Source: Luteibacter flocculans
GTDB taxonomy: Bacteria > Pseudomonadota > Gammaproteobacteria > Xanthomonadales > Rhodanobacteraceae
Assembly: GCF_023612255.1 (NCBI RefSeq)
Contig: NZ_CP063231.1
Coordinates: forward strand, 974,001 to 1,038,000
Length of the DNA: 64,000 nt
Direction of reading: 5' to 3'
Below, piece by piece: positions 25,191 through 35,720 of the stretch. Every line of letters starts with the position of its first letter. Position 1 is the first letter of the stretch. The translations under genes and the position numbers were made by a program. The notes under the pieces are model-generated. The model saw nothing but the letters and a program-made list of their open reading frames with translations, did no database searches and had not been told where the DNA came from.

Positions 25191-27683
25191 CTATTCCAGT
25201 ACGAACCGGAATACATTGGCGACATGGTGGTCGCCGATGGTGGAGCCTCCTTCGCCGATGATCAGTCGTCGAATGGGGAAGCGAGACGTATGATCGAAGA
25301 GTTGCTCGACCTTCCAGCCTAATCTGGCGAAAGTCTCCGTCTGCGTGCCGTCGTCGCTATATGTCGTAATGAAGGCCGTGCGGACGTTGGACACGATGGC
25401 GACTTGGATGTGTGTCACCGGCTCGCCGACGATCTCGATTTGTACGCGCGCGGTATCCGCGACGTACAGCGAACCGCGGCTGATGTCTCCGGTCGGCGAT
25501 CTATCTTGACCAATGCCTACAAATGGACCGAGCGCCGTGATTTTCACCGCGCCGCCGACGAACGAGATGGGCGTATTGATCGGCAATGCCCCGGTATAGA
25601 TACCCGACTCCTTGAAATCCAACGCGACCCGGCTCCTGCCGGTGCGAGCCACATCCAAGAAGGCGGGGTCGGATGCATAGGATAGGCCGCCGCGCGTAAG
25701 TGTATAAATCACGGGCACGCGCTGACCAAGATAGCGCGCGAACTCGGTCACCGGAATCTCGAAGGTCATGCCGTCGGTCGCTGGCCGCGTGGTCGTGGTG
25801 TACTCGCCGATACTGACGCTTATGAGGTCGCCGGCCTGGAACGTGAGCCCTGCAGGAAGGCGGACGATGACGGTGTCGCCAATGGTTCCGATGTCCAGCT
25901 TGCCTGCGGCGCTGCCATCGATCGTGGGCGCAGTGAGATCGCGCAAACGAATGCCGACGTTGAACTCGGCGATCTCCGCATTGAACGTCTCGTCGTCTCG
26001 CTCGACGGTATACAGCACGGTGACCGTGCTGCCGACGTTCTTGTTGAGGAACGGTTCCTTCGGAACGAGGAAGGTCAAGGCGGAGCCAAGCGAGGTGAGA
26101 GTCTTCTTGTAAACGTTCCTGTCGATGCTGCCATACCAATAGAGCGTTATTCGATCGCCTGACTGCATGCCGGGATAGTTCACTATCACCCGCGTGCCCA
26201 GATTGTTGTCTATCTTCGCCGGATCGATGGTGTCGCCGTCCGCTTGCGAGATGATGGCTGCGGGCAGGACGGGTAGCGTGGGGTCGCGCAAGCGATAGGT
26301 TCGTTCGGGTGCCTGGATCGATTGCACCGGCTTTCCCTTTCCGGGCGCGCCACTGTAAACGAGCAACTTGTAGGTGAAGGTGACGGTACTCCCGTTGAGC
26401 GCGTTGATTTCGTTGCTGAGAATGTCGAAGCGTAGCGGGAAGGTGCTGGTCGCGGTGATGTCGATGTCCCCTTCGGACATGATCGTCGTGCCGTCCGTGG
26501 CGGTGCCGTGCATGAGGTAGCGAACTCGCGTGCCCGGTTTCATCAGCGGGCTGTAGGGAATGGCGAGCGTGGCCTTGCCCGCGACCAGCACCTTTTCCGG
26601 GTCGAGGCTGTCGCCTTCCGCTTCGAGGATGTCAGGCGCCACGAGGGACGCCGGCTTGCCGACGATCGAGAAGTTGAAACGATCGGACATCGTCACCGCA
26701 TCGCCGCGCTTCCTCTCGTACCACACGGCGGCATCGCCTCCCATCAGTGACGCCAGTACGTCGTTCGGAAGTGTGGTGCGACTGAACGTCTGCGCGGCGG
26801 TGACCTCCGGCCCGGTGTATTCGATCGGAAGACCGTCCGCCGTCGTGCCTGCCAGATGCACGATGATCACGTCGCCCCGCTCCAGCGGCGCGATGGTCAT
26901 CCTGGCCGGTGCCCCAAGCAGCGCGTCCACGTCCAGTACATAGTCACCCTCGATCAGCGTCACCTGGGAAATCGTCGGCGGGTTCAGGGGCGATGCGCCT
27001 GCTACGTTTACGTTAGTGGAGGGCGACATGGCCATGTCGCCCGAATCGTCCTTGACGGTGTAGCTCACGTTGATGCCCTGGCCCGTGCCTCCCGCGTCGA
27101 TGAGCGCTCGTGCGATGGCAATGTCGACCGGGCCGCCAACGTCGCTTGCGGTAATGACGCGCGAGACTTCGTTGCCGGCGGCGCCCCAGCGAGTCGTAAT
27201 GGTGTCGCCGGCTCGCATGTTGGCGTAGGTATCGATGCTGACCGTGGCCCCCGCCGTCGTTGGGGTGATCGCGGTGGGCGATACGCGTGGTGTCGCAAGG
27301 GAGTTTGTTCCATCCGGGGCGATGCCGGGTCGATCGAGCCAGATGGCGACCTGGGTGGTCGTCGAGGCAACGGAGGTGCCCTCCCTGAGGACGTCCACGA
27401 CGAAGTCGTGAATGCCGCTACCCAGCGCGGCAAGCGCTTTGCCGGCGATATAGAACGACACGGTCTTCTCGACGCCGGCCGCGGTTTGTGGCGTCTCGGC
27501 GATGCCAACGGTGCGCCTGCCAGGTGCGAATAGCACCACGCTGTCGCCTGCTTCGAAATCCCAGGGGCCGACGGTGACGAGCGTCGGACGGTCCGGAGGG
27601 TTGAGAAGATCGTCGTACCCCAGGGCGCCGTCGGCGGCGTCGCGGAAGACGGCTGTCGGCTGCGAGGTGGTCTGGCTGTTCAT
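25191..27683 (-). CDS. Tandem beta-sandwich (Ig-like) repeat protein of unknown function
   Basis: I do not recognise this 830-aa protein as a named family. It consists of about six units of 100-125 residues, each built around a core like (Y/W)P-x-M-x-x-G-D-x-I-x-L-x-W-x-G: for example NYPGMQSGDRITLYWYG, ANMRAGDTITTRWG and APLERGDVIIVHLAG. Units end in strands such as VTVLYTVERDDETF and are joined by P-x-I-x-x-A linkers. The last ~150 residues (from VALDFKESG) form a different beta-rich module. There is no signal peptide or membrane segment, so export, if any, is unconventional. The ATG at 27681-27683 has AAGGA about 10 bases upstream. Base composition looks less GC-rich than in the neighbours, suggesting transfer. 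The gene stands alone. Confidence 0.82.
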   Translation of the reverse strand: MNSQTTSQPTAVFRDAADGALGYDDLLNPPDRPTLVTVGPWDFEAGDSVVLFAPGRRTVGIAETPQTAAGVEKTVSFYIAGKALAALGSGIHDFVVDVLREGTSVASTTTQVAIWLDRPGIAPDGTNSLATPRVSPTAITPTTAGATVSIDTYANMRAGDTITTRWGAAGNEVSRVITASDVGGPVDIAIARALIDAGGTGQGINVSYTVKDDSGDMAMSPSTNVNVAGASPLNPPTISQVTLIEGDYVLDVDALLGAPARMTIAPLERGDVIIVHLAGTTADGLPIEYTGPEVTAAQTFSRTTLPNDVLASLMGGDAAVWYERKRGDAVTMSDRFNFSIVGKPASLVAPDILEAEGDSLDPEKVLVAGKATLAIPYSPLMKPGTRVRYLMHGTATDGTTIMSEGDIDITATSTFPLRFDILSNEINALNGSTVTFTYKLLVYSGAPGKGKPVQSIQAPERTYRLRDPTLPVLPAAIISQADGDTIDPAKIDNNLGTRVIVNYPGMQSGDRITLYWYGSIDRNVYKKTLTSLGSALTFLVPKEPFLNKNVGSTVTVLYTVERDDETFNAEIAEFNVGIRLRDLTAPTIDGSAAGKLDIGTIGDTVIVRLPAGLTFQAGDLISVSIGEYTTTTRPATDGMTFEIPVTEFARYLGQRVPVIYTLTRGGLSYASDPAFLDVARTGRSRVALDFKESGIYTGALPINTPISFVGGAVKITALGPFVGIGQDRSPTGDISRGSLYVADTARVQIEIVGEPVTHIQVAIVSNVRTAFITTYSDDGTQTETFARLGWKVEQLFDHTSRFPIRRLIIGEGGSTIGDHHVANVFRFVLE

Positions 27684-27875: not shown

Positions 27876-27993
27876 GTGGGAGCCGCCATGGCGGCGAGGG
27901 AAGGTTACTGGTGGGAGCTAGCCTGCTGGCGATGAGGGCTTGCCTCACGGCTACACCGCTTTGTTGGCTTCTCGCCGCCATGGCGGCTCCCAC
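27876..27993. repeat. Palindromic repeat cluster, copy B (one single unit plus one composite)
   Basis: A single forward unit at 27876-27900 (GTGGGAGCCGCCATGGCGGC) is followed by a full composite at 27910-27993. The composite is inverted relative to copies A and D: its reverse complement reads head, AAGCCAACAAAGCGGTGTAG spacer, opposed head. It is 84 bp, one base shorter than copies A and D. It marks the gap between the tandem-repeat gene and the GH2-GH64 gene. Confidence 0.85.
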
Positions 27994-28323: not shown

Positions 28324-31300
28324 ATGAAGCGATTACCCGCAGCACACCGGAGCGCACCTCCGCGAGCACGGCTTTCCGCCGTGCTCGCCATGGTGTTCCT
28401 TGGCGTGACCGCGACGGCCCAGGCCGTCACGCTTGCGCCATCGGACCGACAGGACATCAACCTCGGCGCTCAGCCCTGGAAGTACACCAAGCAGGCCATC
28501 GTCAATCCGAACGACCCGGTCGTCTACGCACCGGTGCCGAATGGCGACGACGGTGCCGCCGTCGGCTTCGACGACAGCAAGTGGCTCACGGTCGGCCTGC
28601 CGCACGCGGCCAACGATTTCACGACCTTCATCAACCAGGAGTCCGGCGGCGGCCAGGGCAGCCTCGATGGCGAGACGAGCTGGTATCGCACCAGGCTCGC
28701 CGATTCCGCGTCGTACCGTGGCAAGAAGGTCATGGTGGAGTTCGAAGGTGCGCACACGGGCGATCGCGTGTACGTCAACGGCCGGTTCATCCCCGGCACG
28801 GGCGTGTTGAACCAGCCCGGCAAGCCGGATGCGCAGGCCACACACGTGATCGGCTTCCTGCCACACATCGTGGACCTGACCCCTTACCTGAAATTCGATG
28901 GCACCGATGTGCTGGCGGTGAAGGTCAGCCGTAGTGGCGGTGGGTTCTTCGAGGATCCTGGCTTCTCCGGTTCGTTCCGCTTCGGTCAAGCCGAAGCCGG
29001 CATCTTCCGCCCGGTCAAGCTGCACGTGACCAACCTCGTGCACATTCCCGAGAACGTGTACGCGGGCCAGAACACCTGGGGCACGTACGTGGGCACGCAG
29101 GCGCTCAGTGCGGATCACAAGCAGGCCACCATCCGCGTGCAGACCAACGTCGTCAACGAAACGACGGCACCGCAGGCGGTCACGTTGACGACGCAGATCG
29201 TCGATGCCGACGGCAACCTCGTGGCGAGCGATCAGAAGCAGGCGACGCTGGCGCCCGGTGTGGTTCCCGGCGATCAGAACCCCGTCTTCGACGAGACGCT
29301 GACGGTGGCCAACCCGACGCTCTGGTATCCGAACAACAGCGTCGACGGCAAGCCGTATCTCTACCGCGTGCTGCATACGGTCAGCATCGACGGCACGGTG
29401 GTGGATGCGAAGCAGAGCACGCTCGGCATCCGCACCATCACCTGGGACAAGGACTTCCCGTACGTCAACGGCAAGAAGCAATACATGTGGGGCGGCTCGG
29501 GTCGCTATGACTATCCGGGCCTCGGTTCCTCGGTGCCCGAAGAGCAGCAGTGGCGCGATCTGAAACAGATGGCGGCGGCGGGCGGCAACCTCTGGCGTCC
29601 GGGTCATTCGCCGTCGAGCCCCGAGTTCGTCGAAGCGGCGGACGCGCTGGGCGTGTTCATCGTGCAGCCCAGCGGCGACGGCGAGAACGGCTTTGCGAAT
29701 GCCTGCGCGGCAGGCGACCAGGCTTGCGCGGACATGTGGACGATCAAGCGCGAGGTCCACCGCGACATCGTGATCCGCGATCGCAGCCACCCGTCGATCC
29801 TTGCGTGGGAACACAACAACGGTGCGATGAATACCGCCTTTGCGCAGGAGCTTCGTGCGCTGGCCCGGAGTTGGGACAGCATCGCGCCGCGTGCCGCGGC
29901 CGACCGTACGCCCAACGCCGCCAACGGCGACATCCTGAGCTGCTCCAAGGCCGGCTGCGAGACCTATCTGCACTCTACCGAATACCCGAACAAGCCCGCA
30001 TGGGGCGCTGAGTATTGGGGCCCCGGCACGTTGCGTCACTCGTACGATTACGAACTGGCCTTCGCGCTCAACTACCTCGTGCCGTATTCGCAAGCGCGCA
30101 AGGTGGGCACCTTTGGCATGGCGCAGTGGTATTTCGCGGATACGCCTGGAGAGACCATCGAGCTTGTCGAGGGTCTGGAAGACGCCACGCACTGGGTCTA
30201 CCAGCGCAACCCCGACGGCAGTATTGCCACGCGTGCCGACGGCACACCGATCAAGGGCTTCCGCCACAATGCGCGTGGCAACAACGCGTCGATGACGGAC
30301 GCGAATCGGTTCCCGCGCATGCTGTATTACATCTACGAGTCCGTGTGGGTGCCGTACGAGCTGCGCCCCGTCGTGAAGCTCGCGCACCATTGGAACCGCG
30401 GCGGCGACGTGCAGGTCAATGCGTTCAGCAATTGCCCCAAGGTTCGCCTGCTCATCAACGGTGTGCCGCAGGGTAACGATCAGGTGCCGAACACCTGGGA
30501 CACCATCGACGAGGCCTCATACAACCTCGAAAACGGCGATACCGATCACCTCACCGGCAAGATCGTCGGTGCCGATCAGGCGCAGAAGACGACGAAGCTT
30601 CCGGGTCAGGTGCATTGGAACGTGACCTGGCAGGCCGGCACAGCGACTGCCCAGTGCCTCGACAATCTCGGCAACGTGCGCACGGATGCCAACGGCAATC
30701 CGGTCGCCGATACGCTCACCACCGCCGGCCCGGCGCATCACATCGAGCTGGAAGTGGTGAATACGGCCGACCCGATCGTCAAGCCCGACGGCACCGCGTT
30801 CCGCATCACCGCGAACGGCTCGGACGCTGCGTTCATCGTTGCGAAGGTGGTCGATGCGCAGGGCGTGGTCGTACCGGATGCGGCGCAGAAGGTGACCTTC
30901 GACGTCGACAGCGGTGCCTCGCTGGTGACCTACAACGGCGGCACGCAGCAGTACGTCGATTACAGCGACGGCGAGACGCCCGATCCGAACGGCGGCATCG
31001 CCGAGCCGCACCATTACTACCATTCACCCGGTTCGCACGAACTGCAATTCGAAGGCGGCCTGCAGAAGATCGCCCTGCGTACGAAGTTCGACACCGGCAC
31101 CGTGACGGTGAGTGCGTCGGCGGCAGGCCTGCTGCCCGGGCACGTCTCGTTCACCATTTCGCCGGTGCCGAAGGCGCCGACGCCGTCGGGTCCGCCCTCG
31201 GTCATTGCCGATCCGGTCGACGACAGCGTGACCGTGGGCGATACCGGACATTTCTCGGTGACAGCCTCGGGCGCACCGCCGCTCAGCTTCACCTGGAAGA

Positions 31301-34300
31301 AGAACGGCGTGGAGATTGCCGGGGCTACGGGGGCGAGCTACACCACGCCGGCCACGACGCTTGCCGACGACGGCTCGCGCTACTCGGTGGTCGTGCACGG
31401 CCAGGGTTCGGATCAGGAATCGGCACCCGCCACGCTTCACGTCTTCCCCTTCAAGCCCGTGGTGATCGCCACGCAGCCGCAGCCGCAGAACGTGGACGAA
31501 GGGCAGGTGGCGCACTTCGCCGTCGTGGCGTCGGGCTCGCCGAAGGTGCAGTACAAGTGGATGAAGGACGGTGTGGCGATTCCCAATGCCACCGGGCCGA
31601 CCTACGACACACCGGTGCTTACGCAGGCCGATAGCGGCAAGAGCTACAGCGTGTTCGTCAGCAATAGCGGCAGCCAGCAGTTGTCGGACGCCGTTCGCCT
31701 TACCGTGAATGGCGCGCGCCCGCCGGTGTTTACCGGCGCGATGCCGGATGTGCGTGCGAACCCCGGTCAGCCGGCGACGTTCGACGTCTCCACGCTGGTC
31801 GCGGGCACGGCACCGTTCCACTACACGTGGTCGCACGGCGGACAGCCGGTCGGCGACGACCAACCGACGCTCACGATCGCCTCGGTGCAGCAGGCCGACG
31901 TCGGTACGTACAGCGTCACGGTGAGCAACATTACCGGCGATGCCGCGGCCGTTACCGCATCGGCGAAGCTTACGCTGGCGCCGCCGGGGGCAAACCTGGC
32001 CCGCGAAAAGCAGACGCTGTCGTCGGAGGTGGAAAATGCGCAGGGCACGGCCGCGTGGCAGGCGGTGGACGGCAATGAAGGTACGCGCTGGGGCTCCAAG
32101 ATCGGTGACGACAATGCGTTCATCACCGTCGATCTCGGCGCTTCGCGCACCTTCAATCGCGTGGTGCTGAAGTGGGAGAACGCCCACGCTTCCGAGTACA
32201 AGATCCAGTACTCGGACGATCCGAACACCGGCTTCAAGGATGCGTACCACGCCGAGACCAGCAATGGCGGTACGGAGGACTTCACCTTCGACCACCCGGT
32301 TACCGGTCGCTATGTCCGCATGCAGGGCATCAAGCGCGCCACGGACTACGGTTACTCGTTGTACGAATTTGAGGTATACGACTCCGCGGGCTGCTGCGCG
32401 ACGACCGATCGCTACACGACGACCGTCGGTTCGAACCTGGTGACCGACACGCTGAGCGGCTTGCAATGGGATCGCGTGCAGCGTGGCTTCACTGATCAAG
32501 GCGCGCAGTTCACGCAGTCTGTCGCGATCCAGACCTGCGCGAAGGACAGCATGCGTCTGCCGACCGTCGACGAAGCGCTTGCGATCAGCGGCCAGAACTA
32601 CTCCACCGCCGCATTCCCGGGCGCATGGACGACCTGGACCGAAGGCACCGATCCGAGCGACTCGCAGTTCGCCTTCCAGGTGAATTCGCTCGGTGTGAAG
32701 AGTCGTGAAGTGGCGGAGAACAATCCGGGTCACGTGCTCTGCGTGAAGGGTGCGAAGGTCTTCGCGCCGGTCATCAGCGCACAGCCCACCAGCCAGAAGG
32801 CCGGTGTGGGTCGCTCCGCGCACTTCGCCGTCGCTGCCACCGGTACCGGCCCTCTGAGCTACGACTGGTACGGCGTCAGCAAGAACGCCGATGGTGTGGA
32901 CGTTGAGTCGTTCCTCTCCAGCACGTCCGACGGCACCTATGCCACGCCGGCATTGACCACGGCCAACGACGGCACGCGCCTCCGGGTGAAGGTGGTGAGC
33001 GCACAGGGGCTTTCGACGACCAGCAGCGACGTCACGCTGGCCGTGGACACCTCCACCGATGGCTTCGATCCCGTGTTCGGCGCGCCGGTCGCCACCCAGC
33101 CGGGTAACGGCAATGGCAACGGCGGCGATGGCACCGGCAATCCGCCGAGTCCGGGCACGCCGGGCGATGGCAAGGGTGGCGTGAACATCGCGATCGGCGC
33201 GATCGCCTCGTCCTCGGTGGCCAGCGAGCGGGGCGATCTGGGTCCGTCGGCAGCCATCGATGGTGACTTCACCACGCGTTGGAGTTCGGCGCCGAAAGTC
33301 GATCCGGCGGATCTCGTGGTGAACTTCGGTACGCCGAAGACCTTCGACCACGTGATCATGCGCTGGGAAACCGCCTCGTCAGCCCAATACACGATCGACG
33401 TGTCGGACGACGGCAAGCAGTGGCGTACCGTGAAAGGCCCGATCGCAGGTAAGGGCGGCGTCGACATGCAGTCGTTCGCACCGCAGACGGCCCAGTTCGT
33501 GCGCATGAACAGCACGGCCCGCAACACCGACTACGGCAATTCGCTGTTCGAGTTCGAGGTGTACCAGGCAGCGGCGGTGCAACCGACGCAGCCGATCGTC
33601 GACCAGCCACCGCAGACTACACCGCAGCAGCCCGACACGACGGTGCCCGCTACGGGCAACCTCGCCCTCCACCGCACTGTGCTGGCTTCCGACAGCGAAA
33701 ACCCGATCGCTTTCAAGCCGGAGAACGTGAACGATGGCGATGGCGGAACCCGCTGGTCCTCGGGCTTCACGGATGATCAGTGGATCCAGATCGATCTCGG
33801 CTCGGTGAAGACGATCGGCAAGGTAGTGCTCTCGTGGGAGAACGCGCATGCGCTGGCCTACCGCATCGATGTATCGATCGACGGCAAGACCTGGAACGTG
33901 GCGTACGACAACGAGAACGGGCAGGGCGGTGTGGAAACCGTGACCTTCCCGGCCGTCTCTGCCCAGTACGTGCGAATGACGGGCCTGAAGCGTTCCACGG
34001 CCTACGGCTATTCGCTGTGGGAAATGGGCGTCTATGCCGCTACCGACGATGGCACGGGCACGCCGCCGCAGAATCCGCAGGCGAACGATCCGGCTCAGGG
34101 TTTCAGCTACGAAACCTATCCGGGCTTTGTCGGCACGCAACTGCGCAACGTGACCAACGGCAAATGGCGCGACGACCAGATCTTCGTCGCCGTGATCGGC
34201 CGCGATCCAACGTCGCACGCGTTCTCGTGGGTGAAGCCGGACGGCACGCTCACGGCCGCCGCGGTGGAGGACAACGATGGCGCGGGGCACCTGACCAAGA

Positions 34301-35256
34301 ACGGCCAGAACTATCCGAACTACTTCTTCACGCTGGCGCAGGCCAAGCTGCTCAAGCTGCCGAAGATGGATTCGGGCCGCATCTTCGTCTCGGTCGGTGA
34401 ACCGATGTACATCAAGATCCTGAAGGCGGCCGACGGTTCGATCGGTTTCGCGGGCCCCAACCCGCTCAACGACACCGATCCGAACATCGGCGTGTACTAC
34501 GACTGGTACGAGTTCACCTGGAACGACAACGCCATCTTCATCAACACGACGCAGGTCGATCAGTTCTCGATCCCGCTGTCGCTCGATGTGTATGGCGGCG
34601 ACAAGTCCAGGCACGAGGCATCGGGCATCACACAGACGCGCGCGCAGATCTTTGCGCAGTACAACCAGGAAGTGCCGGCGGAGTTCCAGTTGGCCGAGGC
34701 CGATCCGATCCGCATCCTGGCGCCGGGCAAGGCGGCGTTCGACATCGGCAAGCCGCAGGAGCACTACTTCGACGACTACATCGACCAGTCGTGGACGTAC
34801 TACCAGAACCACGTGTTGCAGATGACCATCGGCAACAAGCAGTTCGAGGGTACCGTGGTCGATGGCGTGCTGACCTTCACCCATACCAACTGGGCGGACA
34901 CGCACGAGCCGGACGAACCGCAGGGGATGCTGTTCAAGGTGAGCAAGCCAAGCACGCAGGACGTGCTCGAAGGCAAGGGCGCACTGGCCCGGTCGAGCGA
35001 TCCCTGGGGTGTCGAAGGCCAGCTCGAGGCGCAGATCTGCGCGGCGTTCAACCGTCACGTGATGGAAGACGTGACCCAGTGGAAGGATCCGAGCACGTTC
35101 TACACGCAGTCGCCAGCGAACTACTACTCGCGCTTCTGGCACCTGCATGGCGTGAACGGCAAGGCGTATGGCTTCGCCTATGACGATGTATCCGACCAGA
35201 GCTCGACGCTGATCGAGACGCAGCCGGAACATCTGGAGCTAGGCATCGGCTGGTAA
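28324..35256 (+). CDS. Giant secreted multi-domain glycosidase: GH2 + Ig-like + F5/8C x3 + DUF1566 + GH64 beta-1,3-glucanase
   Basis: A 2310-aa exported protein; signal peptide at about 1-36 (ending ATAQA). Order of domains: GH2 sugar-binding, Ig and TIM-barrel domains at about 40-680; beta domains at 690-945 (DUF4982-like); Ig-like domains at about 955-1218; F5/8-type C (CBM32-like) at 1222-1360; DUF1566/Lcl at 1360-1478 (TDTLSGLQWDR, MRLPTVDEAL); Ig-like at 1479-1578; Gly/Asn linker; F5/8C at 1621-1750; Pro/Gln linker; F5/8C at 1778-1910; GH64 at about 1925-2310. GH64 catalytic residues are present as Glu2063 (DWYEFT) and Asp2079 (TQVDQF), spaced 16 apart as in the characterised laminaripentaose-producing enzyme. 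In GH2 the nucleophile is Glu563 (GAEYWG), but the acid/base position reads Asn499 (WEHNNG). Likely target: beta-1,3-glucan-containing walls (inference). The ATG at 28324 gives the signal peptide; a strong terminator follows. Confidence 0.9.
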   Translation: MKRLPAAHRSAPPRARLSAVLAMVFLGVTATAQAVTLAPSDRQDINLGAQPWKYTKQAIVNPNDPVVYAPVPNGDDGAAVGFDDSKWLTVGLPHAANDFTTFINQESGGGQGSLDGETSWYRTRLADSASYRGKKVMVEFEGAHTGDRVYVNGRFIPGTGVLNQPGKPDAQATHVIGFLPHIVDLTPYLKFDGTDVLAVKVSRSGGGFFEDPGFSGSFRFGQAEAGIFRPVKLHVTNLVHIPENVYAGQNTWGTYVGTQALSADHKQATIRVQTNVVNETTAPQAVTLTTQIVDADGNLVASDQKQATLAPGVVPGDQNPVFDETLTVANPTLWYPNNSVDGKPYLYRVLHTVSIDGTVVDAKQSTLGIRTITWDKDFPYVNGKKQYMWGGSGRYDYPGLGSSVPEEQQWRDLKQMAAAGGNLWRPGHSPSSPEFVEAADALGVFIVQPSGDGENGFANACAAGDQACADMWTIKREVHRDIVIRDRSHPSILAWEHNNGAMNTAFAQELRALARSWDSIAPRAAADRTPNAANGDILSCSKAGCETYLHSTEYPNKPAWGAEYWGPGTLRHSYDYELAFALNYLVPYSQARKVGTFGMAQWYFADTPGETIELVEGLEDATHWVYQRNPDGSIATRADGTPIKGFRHNARGNNASMTDANRFPRMLYYIYESVWVPYELRPVVKLAHHWNRGGDVQVNAFSNCPKVRLLINGVPQGNDQVPNTWDTIDEASYNLENGDTDHLTGKIVGADQAQKTTKLPGQVHWNVTWQAGTATAQCLDNLGNVRTDANGNPVADTLTTAGPAHHIELEVVNTADPIVKPDGTAFRITANGSDAAFIVAKVVDAQGVVVPDAAQKVTFDVDSGASLVTYNGGTQQYVDYSDGETPDPNGGIAEPHHYYHSPGSHELQFEGGLQKIALRTKFDTGTVTVSASAAGLLPGHVSFTISPVPKAPTPSGPPSVIADPVDDSVTVGDTGHFSVTASGAPPLSFTWKKNGVEIAGATGASYTTPATTLADDGSRYSVVVHGQGSDQESAPATLHVFPFKPVVIATQPQPQNVDEGQVAHFAVVASGSPKVQYKWMKDGVAIPNATGPTYDTPVLTQADSGKSYSVFVSNSGSQQLSDAVRLTVNGARPPVFTGAMPDVRANPGQPATFDVSTLVAGTAPFHYTWSHGGQPVGDDQPTLTIASVQQADVGTYSVTVSNITGDAAAVTASAKLTLAPPGANLAREKQTLSSEVENAQGTAAWQAVDGNEGTRWGSKIGDDNAFITVDLGASRTFNRVVLKWENAHASEYKIQYSDDPNTGFKDAYHAETSNGGTEDFTFDHPVTGRYVRMQGIKRATDYGYSLYEFEVYDSAGCCATTDRYTTTVGSNLVTDTLSGLQWDRVQRGFTDQGAQFTQSVAIQTCAKDSMRLPTVDEALAISGQNYSTAAFPGAWTTWTEGTDPSDSQFAFQVNSLGVKSREVAENNPGHVLCVKGAKVFAPVISAQPTSQKAGVGRSAHFAVAATGTGPLSYDWYGVSKNADGVDVESFLSSTSDGTYATPALTTANDGTRLRVKVVSAQGLSTTSSDVTLAVDTSTDGFDPVFGAPVATQPGNGNGNGGDGTGNPPSPGTPGDGKGGVNIAIGAIASSSVASERGDLGPSAAIDGDFTTRWSSAPKVDPADLVVNFGTPKTFDHVIMRWETASSAQYTIDVSDDGKQWRTVKGPIAGKGGVDMQSFAPQTAQFVRMNSTARNTDYGNSLFEFEVYQAAAVQPTQPIVDQPPQTTPQQPDTTVPATGNLALHRTVLASDSENPIAFKPENVNDGDGGTRWSSGFTDDQWIQIDLGSVKTIGKVVLSWENAHALAYRIDVSIDGKTWNVAYDNENGQGGVETVTFPAVSAQYVRMTGLKRSTAYGYSLWEMGVYAATDDGTGTPPQNPQANDPAQGFSYETYPGFVGTQLRNVTNGKWRDDQIFVAVIGRDPTSHAFSWVKPDGTLTAAAVEDNDGAGHLTKNGQNYPNYFFTLAQAKLLKLPKMDSGRIFVSVGEPMYIKILKAADGSIGFAGPNPLNDTDPNIGVYYDWYEFTWNDNAIFINTTQVDQFSIPLSLDVYGGDKSRHEASGITQTRAQIFAQYNQEVPAEFQLAEADPIRILAPGKAAFDIGKPQEHYFDDYIDQSWTYYQNHVLQMTIGNKQFEGTVVDGVLTFTHTNWADTHEPDEPQGMLFKVSKPSTQDVLEGKGALARSSDPWGVEGQLEAQICAAFNRHVMEDVTQWKDPSTFYTQSPANYYSRFWHLHGVNGKAYGFAYDDVSDQSSTLIETQPEHLELGIGW

Positions 35257-35351: not shown

Positions 35352-35720
35352 TGTGGGAGCCGCCATGGCGGCGAGGGGAGCTCGCCGTGGAGGTTGGGTG
35401 GCGGAGGGGCTGGGCGATGGGGGATTCTGCATCGCCGCTCCGTTGGCTTCTCGCCGCCATGGCGGCTCCCACATGGGTTCTGTGGGCTTCTCGCCGTGAC
35501 GGCTCCTGCATGTGTCGGTGCGAAGATCAAGCGGTGGCGCAGGTTCCGCTCATGTCGTTCTCACTGCCCCTGATCGCCAGCAGGCTGGCTCCCACCGCCA
35601 ACACCGGCGACACAAGGAACACCGTGAGCACCAGGATGAGGCAGCCTGCTGGCATCACGGGCAGGTGCGCACCGGATCGGAGGAATCCTGCTCGGTGGGA
35701 GCCAGCCTGCTGGCGATGGG
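35352..35720. repeat. Palindromic repeat cluster, copy C (degenerate composite plus single units)
   Basis: Fills most of the 500-base gap before darP. A forward head lies at 35352-35376. A degenerate composite on the minus strand lies at about 35405-35472, ending in the same CATGGCGGCTCCCAC head and AAGCCAACGGAGCGG spacer (minus strand). A worn reverse unit lies at about 35484-35512. Single units lie at about 35570-35597 (reverse) and 35694-35720 (forward). Between 35600 and 35690 I see nothing else. This is the right border of the accessory insert. Confidence 0.75.

What the first reader, a model, noticed from the sequence alone, without database searches (positions are those of the whole stretch)
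28324..35256. GH2 glycosidase and GH64 beta-1,3-glucanase fused in one 2310-residue secreted protein
The N-terminal exo-acting GH2 type and the C-terminal GH64 type are normally separate enzymes. Here they are joined by four Ig-like domains, three F5/8C modules and a DUF1566 module. GH64 enzymes release laminaripentaose from beta-1,3-glucan of fungal and oomycete walls; the GH64 Glu/Asp pair (2063/2079, spacing 16) is intact. A single protein combining side-chain removal and backbone cleavage would suit attack on complex fungal, oomycete or algal glucans. I know of no described enzyme with this layout.
Basis: partly seen in the sequence, partly recalled or inferred. Interest (0 to 1): 0.7.

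Follow-up and report, generated by a model that had tools for sequence, protein, structure and literature searches.

The report
Two-enzyme glucan-attacking fusion protein (GH2–GH64)
A soil bacterium secretes one very large protein carrying two sugar-cutting enzymes and several carbohydrate-gripping modules, probably to take apart fungal-type cell walls; the same fusion occurs in dozens of other bacteria, and one of its two enzymes has lost a standard catalytic residue and seems to use another one instead.

Summary
Window 28324-35256 (+) encodes one 2310-aa protein: GH2, three clear Ig-like domains and a weak fourth, three F5/8C (CBM32-type) modules, a weak Lcl_C/DUF1566 module, and a C-terminal GH64. 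It is no assembly fusion: 69 other distinct proteins with both modules were found, in Luteibacter (the window's genus), Dyella/Rhodanobacter, Burkholderiaceae, Silvimonas/Amantichitinum, Nitrospirillum and Acidobacteriaceae. The GH2 and GH64 trees agree.

In 84 of 84 aligned GH2 modules that site is Gly, Ala or Ser, while the nucleophile (E563) and two other barrel glutamates (E454, E496) never vary. The nearest structure by sequence and fold is 6HPD, a GH2 β-glucuronidase that shares this odd site. PMC12243196 reports that another Glu may be the acid/base in subfamily GH2_21.

Most likely: a cell-wall glucan enzyme in which GH64 cuts β-1,3-glucan and GH2 removes a β-linked end sugar by a relocated acid/base. 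Activity and substrate are untested. UxaC is absent from 23 of 23 Luteibacter genomes, which does not support feeding on glucuronate.

The parts
28324..35256 (+). Whole GH2-GH64 gene, 2310 aa
   Evidence: full-length relatives in 6 other genomes of the genus at 83-90% identity
28324..28425 (+). Sec-type signal peptide (residues 1-34, ending AQA)
   Evidence: basic start, then hydrophobic stretch; read by eye, no dedicated predictor run
28672..29025 (+). GH2 sugar-binding (N) domain, residues 117-234
   Evidence: PF02837 26.6 bits, cut-off 28
29095..29433 (+). GH2 Ig-like domain, residues 258-370
   Evidence: PF00703 55.6 bits
29461..30348 (+). GH2 TIM barrel, about residues 380-675 (Pfam match 380-519; the rest estimated from alignment and model)
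   Evidence: PF02836; AlphaFold2 model pLDDT 88.5, pTM 0.91; best PDB fold match 6HPD
29683..29685 (+). E454, after strand 3 (QPSGDGE): candidate relocated acid/base
   Evidence: Glu in 84 of 84 GH2 modules; aligns with a Glu of 6HPD
29809..29811 (+). E496, end of strand 4 (WE): second candidate
   Evidence: Glu in 84 of 84; also in 6HPD
29821..29823 (+). G500 at the place of the canonical GH2 acid/base Glu (NE motif)
   Evidence: G 80, A 3, S 1 of 84; Glu here in 5 canonical GH2s of the comparison alignment
30010..30012 (+). E563, GH2 nucleophile
   Evidence: Glu in 84 of 84
30400..30675 (+). DUF4982, residues 693-784
   Evidence: PF16355 30.8 bits
30802..31137 (+). GH2 C-terminal domain 5, residues 827-938
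   Evidence: PF18565 40 bits
31192..31443 (+). Ig-like domain 1
31453..31707 (+). Ig-like domain 2
31720..31950 (+). Ig-like domain 3
32020..32367 (+). F5/8C (CBM32-type) module 1
   Evidence: PF00754 91.1 bits
32437..32745 (+). Lcl_C / DUF1566-like module (below the Pfam cut-off)
   Evidence: PF07603 29.9 bits on the segment alone, cut-off 34.9; similar weak hits in L103, L134, L109, L116, L121, none in L097
32767..32904 (+). Ig-like domain 4 (weak, partial match)
   Evidence: PF13927 18.8 bits, cut-off 30
33205..33540 (+). F5/8C module 2
   Evidence: PF00754 75.5 bits
33703..34023 (+). F5/8C module 3
   Evidence: PF00754 89.9 bits; nearest PDB chain 4zy9, glucanase/chitosanase, E 5.3e-29
34135..35241 (+). 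GH64 beta-1,3-glucanase, residues 1938-2306
   Evidence: PF16483 273.5 bits; PDB 5h4e E 2.4e-88
34510..34512 (+). E2063, GH64 proton donor
   Evidence: role from PMC8394091
34558..34560 (+). D2079, GH64 base
   Evidence: role from PMC8394091
35279..35308 (+). Intrinsic-terminator-like hairpin just after the stop codon
   Evidence: 13-pair stem; the region had 2 such hits against a shuffle mean of 4.6, so weak

Best explanation
A secreted, bifunctional polysaccharide-degrading enzyme aimed at fungal-type (possibly oomycete or algal) beta-1,3-glucan walls. SHOWN by sequence: one continuous reading frame with GH2, Ig/CBM32-type and GH64 parts; intact GH64 Glu/Asp; a GH2 module with nucleophile but with the acid/base Glu replaced; the arrangement found in several classes of Proteobacteria and in Acidobacteriota. 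INFERRED: export by Sec and type II secretion; the CBM32-type modules hold it on wall polysaccharide; GH64 cuts the beta-1,3-glucan backbone, inverting, to laminari-oligosaccharides; the GH2 module is a retaining exo-enzyme with E563 as nucleophile and E454 (less likely E496) as a relocated acid/base, and takes a beta-linked end or side residue, plausibly a hexuronic acid as in its nearest characterised relative, off the same wall material.
For: Fusion in 69 other distinct proteins. GH2 and GH64 tree distances correlate (r 0.85; 0 of 1000 permutations reach it; 59 proteins). Of 10 genomes with an unfused GH2 that I tested (11 of the 19 loci with an unfused GH2), 8 hold a GH64; in L108, L136 and L149 it is the neighbouring gene. 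GH64 was in 3 of 398 genomes sampled across the window's phylum, an imperfect yardstick because some of the 10 belong to other phyla. Across 84 GH2 modules E454, E496, E563, R425, H428 and W602 never vary and the canonical acid/base site is never Glu. 6HPD, deposited as a beta-glucuronidase, is the top match by sequence and fold and shares the loop-3 Glu, WE and a non-Glu acid/base site. PMC12243196 section 23 states that in GH2_21 the acid/base is replaced and another conserved Glu is thought to stand in. GH64 E2063/D2079 intact. Two GspD-type secretins over cut-off in the genome. Third CBM32 module nearest to glucanase/chitosanase modules.
Against: No activity data. The GH2 clade is only about 26% identical to 6HPD in the barrel, so transfer of substrate is weak. 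UxaC is absent in 23 of 23 Luteibacter genomes, while the search rang in 7 of 14 control genomes. Two Burkholderiaceae genomes (loci L109, L110, L125) have the GH2 and no GH64, and in five Paraburkholderia plasmid-collection records the joined match ended near residue 1905-1913, before GH64 (H1-H4 and H6; not followed up). 13 of 59 fused proteins, all in the Dyella/Rhodanobacter-type clade, have GH64 Asp replaced by Asn, so joint activity is not needed everywhere. E610 is a fourth invariant Glu, absent from 6HPD, so E454 and E496 are not the only candidates. One Phocaeicola GH2 (L168) has WE together with what looks like an NE one residue further on, so WE alone is not diagnostic. The gene sits among housekeeping genes (yhdP, tldD, darP, pmbA), not in a carbohydrate cluster.
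Confidence: 0.6

Rival explanations
1. The GH2 half is a pseudoenzyme: it has lost its acid/base Glu and now only binds glycan, so the protein is a GH64 glucanase with a large binding head.
For: Canonical acid/base absent in 84 of 84; parts of such large CAZymes are often non-catalytic (recall).
Against: The nucleophile E563, Arg425, His428, Trp602 and extra glutamates are invariant in modules down to 42% identical to the window's; 6HPD, with the same kind of site, is deposited as a beta-glucuronidase and GH2_21 is reported active.
Confidence: 0.2
2. The two halves act on different polymers of one wall (for instance glucan by GH64 and a uronic-acid-, galactose- or mannose-containing heteropolysaccharide by GH2) and are joined only to share the binding modules. 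This overlaps with the best explanation, so the odds do not add to one.
For: GH2 without GH64 in 2 of 10 genomes tested; GH64 without GH2: 22 of 51 GH64 matches in the order lie in frames under 700 aa, 3 of 23 in the genus, and both other GH64s in the phylum sample; GH2_21 acts on uronic acids.
Against: Correlated trees and adjacent genes suggest a closer tie, though they do not exclude this.
Confidence: 0.35
3. Assembly or gene-calling artefact joining two genes.
For: None found.
Against: One 4.3 Mb contig; 69 other distinct fused proteins; no change of codon composition across the joints (GC3 0.82-0.88 in ten successive pieces).
Confidence: 0.01
4. The GH64 half is a binding domain only.
For: In the Dyella/Rhodanobacter-type clade the catalytic Asp is Asn in 13 of 13 named-contig proteins.
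Against: Glu and Asp are both kept in the window protein and in 46 of 59 other fused proteins.
Confidence: 0.05

Closest known systems
GH64 laminaripentaose-releasing beta-1,3-glucanases (PDB 5h4e, 9vp9, 5h9x, 3gd0; GluY of Cellulosimicrobium, PMC8394091)
   Same: Full-length GH64 domain, catalytic Glu/Asp with the same spacing of 16, C-terminal end GW as in 5h4e
   Different: Those named in the passages I read are stand-alone or carry one lectin-type module; here GH64 is the C-terminal sixth of a 2310-aa protein with a GH2
GH2 subfamily 21 and PDB 6HPD (beta-glucuronidase). That 6HPD is the GH2_21 enzyme of Reisky et al. 2019, cited by PMC12243196, is my inference; that paper was not seen
   Same: Top match by sequence and fold; acid/base Glu absent; Glu in loop 3 and at the end of strand 4; nucleophile kept
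   Different: About 26% identity in the barrel, separate clade in the tree; Gly, not Trp, Lys, Arg or Asn, at the acid/base site; extra Ig, CBM32 and GH64 modules
NCBIfam GalA / GalB beta-galactosidases
   Same: Best NCBIfam matches (239 and 214 bits)
   Different: Cut-off is 900 bits; the two GalA examples aligned have the canonical NE motif
CBM32-type modules of a glucanase/chitosanase (PDB 4zy9, 2rv9, 4zxe)
   Same: Third F5/8C module matches almost end to end, E 5.3e-29 for 4zy9
   Different: Ligand-contact residues not compared; their chitosan binding is inferred from a reference title seen in PMC7186790

Membership tests
GH64 | Matches the family profile over its length | tested here: met
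   PF16483 5-368 of 370, 273.5 bits, cut-off 27
GH64 | Catalytic Glu (proton donor) and Asp (base) | tested here: met
   E2063 and D2079; roles from PMC8394091
[quoted passage not shown]
   no assay
GH2 | GH2 domain set and fold (sugar-binding, Ig, TIM barrel) | tested here: met
   PF00703 and PF02836 over cut-off, PF02837 just under; model matches GH2 structures, top 6HPD E 2.1e-67
GH2 | Catalytic nucleophile Glu and assisting Arg | tested here: met
   E563 and R425 in 84 of 84; that R425 is the assisting Arg is my assignment from the alignment
GH2 | Acid/base Glu in the NE motif (usual, but PMC12243196 reports exceptions within GH2) | tested here: not met
   G 80, A 3, S 1 of 84. Because exceptions are reported inside the family this does not remove it from GH2
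GH2 subfamily 21 | Acid/base replaced, another conserved Glu near the site | tested here: inconclusive
   Acid/base replaced and a Glu aligned with one of 6HPD conserved; nearness not measured, and I could not confirm that E454 equals E402 of UniProt T2KN75, because its numbering was not available
GH2 subfamily 21 | Sequence clustering with the subfamily | tested here: inconclusive
   nearest to 6HPD of the structures compared, but 23-28% identity over the barrel for the clade members aligned and a separate clade; the subfamily's own assignment method was not run
GH2 subfamily 21 | Beta-glucuronidase activity | not testable with these tools
   indirect: UxaC absent in 23 of 23 genomes of the genus, which does not support uronate catabolism by that route
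CBM32 / F5_8C | F5/8C profile matches | tested here: met
   three modules over cut-off

The most novel reading that the evidence does not exclude
This is an undescribed, horizontally spread class of wall-degrading enzyme in which a new GH2 branch with a relocated acid/base (E454 in barrel loop 3 in place of the Glu of loop 4) works as a unit with a GH64 beta-1,3-glucanase, exposing a beta-glucan decoration or cap that is not yet known as a target of GH2 enzymes; soil and fungus-associated bacteria share it.
Probability: 0.35. Interest if true: 0.68.

Novelty: new variant of a known kind. Interest (0 to 1): 0.5.

Why it matters
GH2 is one of the best-studied glycosidase families, and a clade that has uniformly dropped the acid/base Glu while fixing other barrel glutamates makes a proposed alternative mechanism testable in a second lineage. 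The repeated GH2-GH64 partnership points to a specific, still unnamed linkage in fungal-type walls. The one named protein of this kind whose annotation I saw is called a beta-1,3-glucanase only, so the GH2 half and the pairing are easily overlooked. The 13 natural GH64 Asp-to-Asn relatives give a built-in comparison.

Tried and rejected
Assembly fusion: rejected. The first alignment of relatives picked wrong-strand ORFs for six loci (L058, L060, L061, L064, L071, L073); it was redone with BLAST-chosen ORFs, and for the relatives I use and later. L099 looked like an unfused GH2 beside a GH64, but the two ORFs overlap in different frames, so it is probably a frame-split fusion and I do not count it as neighbour evidence. 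The glucuronate-feeding idea was tested by UxaC and not supported. Literature: see the first-reader field; the original ulvan paper was not seen; a search for the PDB code 6HPD found only two unrelated papers and a last search for it brought nothing used. PMC11497827 names Luteibacter among fungal-necromass decomposers and lists separate GH64 and GH2 genes of Chitinophaga, not a fusion (passages). PMC8802321 lists a GH64 among secreted enzymes of Andreprevotia ripae without a GH2 (passages).

Bias and dropped rows: the genome-contig scan used the pattern QPSGDGE[NG], which contains E454, kept the best 80 of 86 relatives and gave 78 loci, so conservation of E454 in those hits is partly built in. 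The 29 relatives found by whole-protein and GH64 searches are free of this, though 19 of the fused ones are the same proteins in both sets. Of 8 modules lacking that exact pattern, 4 of which also lack the second one, all keep the Glu. An earlier count said 5 where the right number is 4. One GH2 hit at 28% identity (L096) was dropped before the count of 83. All 84 sequences differ, but several are close strains. L143, with the distant GH64, was left out of the trees. Trees were midpoint-rooted and supports were not examined.

Full report
WHAT IS THERE. The window lies in one 4.30 Mb contig, a genome scored 100% complete. The ORF 28324-35256 (+) codes for 2310 residues. Pfam and piecewise scans give, in order: signal peptide by eye, GH2 (residues about 36-945), Ig 1-3, F5/8C 1, a weak Lcl_C (DUF1566) module, a weak Ig 4, F5/8C 2, F5/8C 3, GH64. 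A terminator-like hairpin follows the stop.

NOT AN ARTEFACT. In a search of 61 genomes (the window's and 60 relatives), six others of the genus carry the protein over all 2310 positions at 83-90% identity, and further ones carry it in two or more pieces within one longer frame. In the genus, 18 of 23 genomes hold a GH64; of 23 GH64 matches 20 lie in frames over 2100 aa and three in frames of 429-667 aa. All 20 long Luteibacter ones (19 besides the window) and all 10 long ones found in two related genera of the order sample have GH2 and GH64 in one ORF. In Luteibacter the gene sits between tldD and darP-pmbA in 16 of 19 relatives' loci, 17 of 20 with the window. Codon GC3 is even across the gene.

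HOW WIDE. A scan with the GH2 alignment kept 78 loci holding 83 GH2 modules of this kind, 59 of them in one ORF with GH64. By group, labelled by hand from record titles, loci with the fusion: Luteibacter 11 of 11, Dyella/Rhodanobacter/Lysobacterales 12 of 12, Nitrospirillum 4 of 4, Silvimonas-Andreprevotia-Amantichitinum 3 of 4, Burkholderiaceae 14 of 17, Acidobacteriaceae 13 of 17, Fibrobacteres MAG 0 of 6, others 2 of 7. Together with the earlier set there are 69 distinct fused proteins besides the window's, 2138-3375 aa long in the named set, with one to five CBM32-type modules by a profile made from the window's own three. A further one lies on a Granulicella tundricola plasmid, annotated 'beta-1,3-glucanase family protein'. 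GH64 is rare at large: 41 of 398 genomes in the order and 3 of 398 in the phylum sample. It also occurs alone: 22 of 51 GH64 matches in the order lie in frames under 700 aa.

COUPLING. In 59 proteins GH2 and GH64 tree distances correlate at r 0.85; none of 1000 permutations reached it. Where the GH2 is not fused, a separate GH64 gene lies directly downstream in L108 and L136 (malectin-fn3-GH64), directly upstream in L149, and about 3 kb away in L111 and L157. I tested 10 genomes holding 11 of the 19 loci with an unfused GH2: 8 have a GH64 somewhere, two Burkholderiaceae genomes have none; three of the 8 (L108, L111, L136) were already known to from their loci. L143 carries a distant GH64 type in the fusion (about 26% identity), which suggests that the partnership arose more than once; I did not test this by a tree. 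The Dyella-type proteins branch among acidobacterial ones in both trees, suggesting horizontal transfer.

THE GH2 SITE. Aligned GH2 modules (84 with the window) keep the nucleophile E563, R425, H428 and W602, but at the acid/base position show G 80, A 3, S 1. The preceding Asn is kept in 84 of 84. Glutamates invariant in all 84 are E454 (after strand 3), E496 (end of strand 4), E563 and E610 (strands from the model). In the comparison alignment five canonical GH2s have the usual NE and no Glu at the E454 or E496 columns; a sixth (Phocaeicola L168) has WE with an apparent NE one residue further on; a Granulicella GH2 (L167) has NK with both other glutamates. 6HPD is the top PDB match by profile (392.9 bits against 314.8 for the next) and by fold; it has Trp at the acid/base site, WE, and a loop-3 Glu, but not E610; a Persicobacter protein 79% identical to it in the barrel has the same set. 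PMC12243196 (outline, sections 22 and 24, section 23 part 1 of 2, references part 3 of 3, and passages) reports for GH2_21 that the acid/base is Trp in one enzyme and often Lys, Arg or Asn, and that another Glu may replace it. The window's clade is therefore like GH2_21 in its site but distant in sequence.

THE GH64 SITE. All 13 separate GH64 ORFs aligned keep both.

MECHANISM. Best reading: secreted (signal peptide; two GspD-type secretins over cut-off in the genome; the rest of a type II system was not searched), anchored on wall polysaccharide by CBM32-type modules, backbone cut by GH64, end or side sugar removed by GH2 with E563 and a relocated acid/base. The target is most likely fungal-type wall: a GH64 enzyme degrades laminarin, pachyman and curdlan and inhibits Candida growth (PMC8394091, passages); the third CBM32 module is nearest to modules of a glucanase/chitosanase; a Luteibacter strain lives inside fungal hyphae and the genus occurs on fungal necromass (PMC9040847 passages; PMC11497827 passages). 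Against a uronic-acid diet, UxaC is missing in 23 of 23 genomes, though removal of a uronic cap would not need it.

VERDICT. A real, conserved, unappreciated enzyme architecture with one atypical catalytic module: a new variant of known kinds rather than a new kind.

Noticed in passing
L046-L055; L115, L118, L120-L123, L137, L140, L144, L154, L158-L160: In the Dyella/Rhodanobacter-type GH2-GH64 proteins the GH64 catalytic Asp is Asn in every member aligned (10 of 10; 13 of 13; the two sets overlap), with neighbouring motifs kept.
   Followed up: partly
window 27876-27993 and 35353-35472: A REP-like palindromic 20-mer (GTGGGAGCCGCCATGGCGGC) stands in opposite orientations about 100 bases apart on each side of the GH2-GH64 gene; 85 exact copies in the genome against 0 for the reversed control.
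   Followed up: partly
window 25191-27683 (-): An 830-aa ORF with what look by eye like repeated segments and no Pfam match at E 0.001 lies beside the gene; no tblastn hit in the 29 Luteibacter and Dyella-type loci held, which reach only about 4 kb beyond their gene.
   Followed up: no
L146, L149, L155 (Fibrobacteres MAG fen_1185): Several stand-alone GH2s of this clade in tandem, and 16 GH64 matches in the genome that holds L146.
   Followed up: partly
L061, L062 and L076: Two Luteibacter genomes carry a second, divergent GH2-GH64 paralogue elsewhere and an unfused GH64 gene in a frame of 660-667 aa; the one read (L076) also matches the third CBM32 module.
   Followed up: no
L099:504-9118: GH2 and GH64 lie in overlapping ORFs of different frames, as if the fused gene were frame-split in this Edaphobacter contig.
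   Followed up: no
window 28333-30390, 31024-33351, 33379-35232 (-): Long antisense ORFs (617-775 aa) lie opposite the gene, and in 10 of 29 relatives' loci an antisense ORF exceeds 2000 aa; probably an effect of high GC3.
   Followed up: partly
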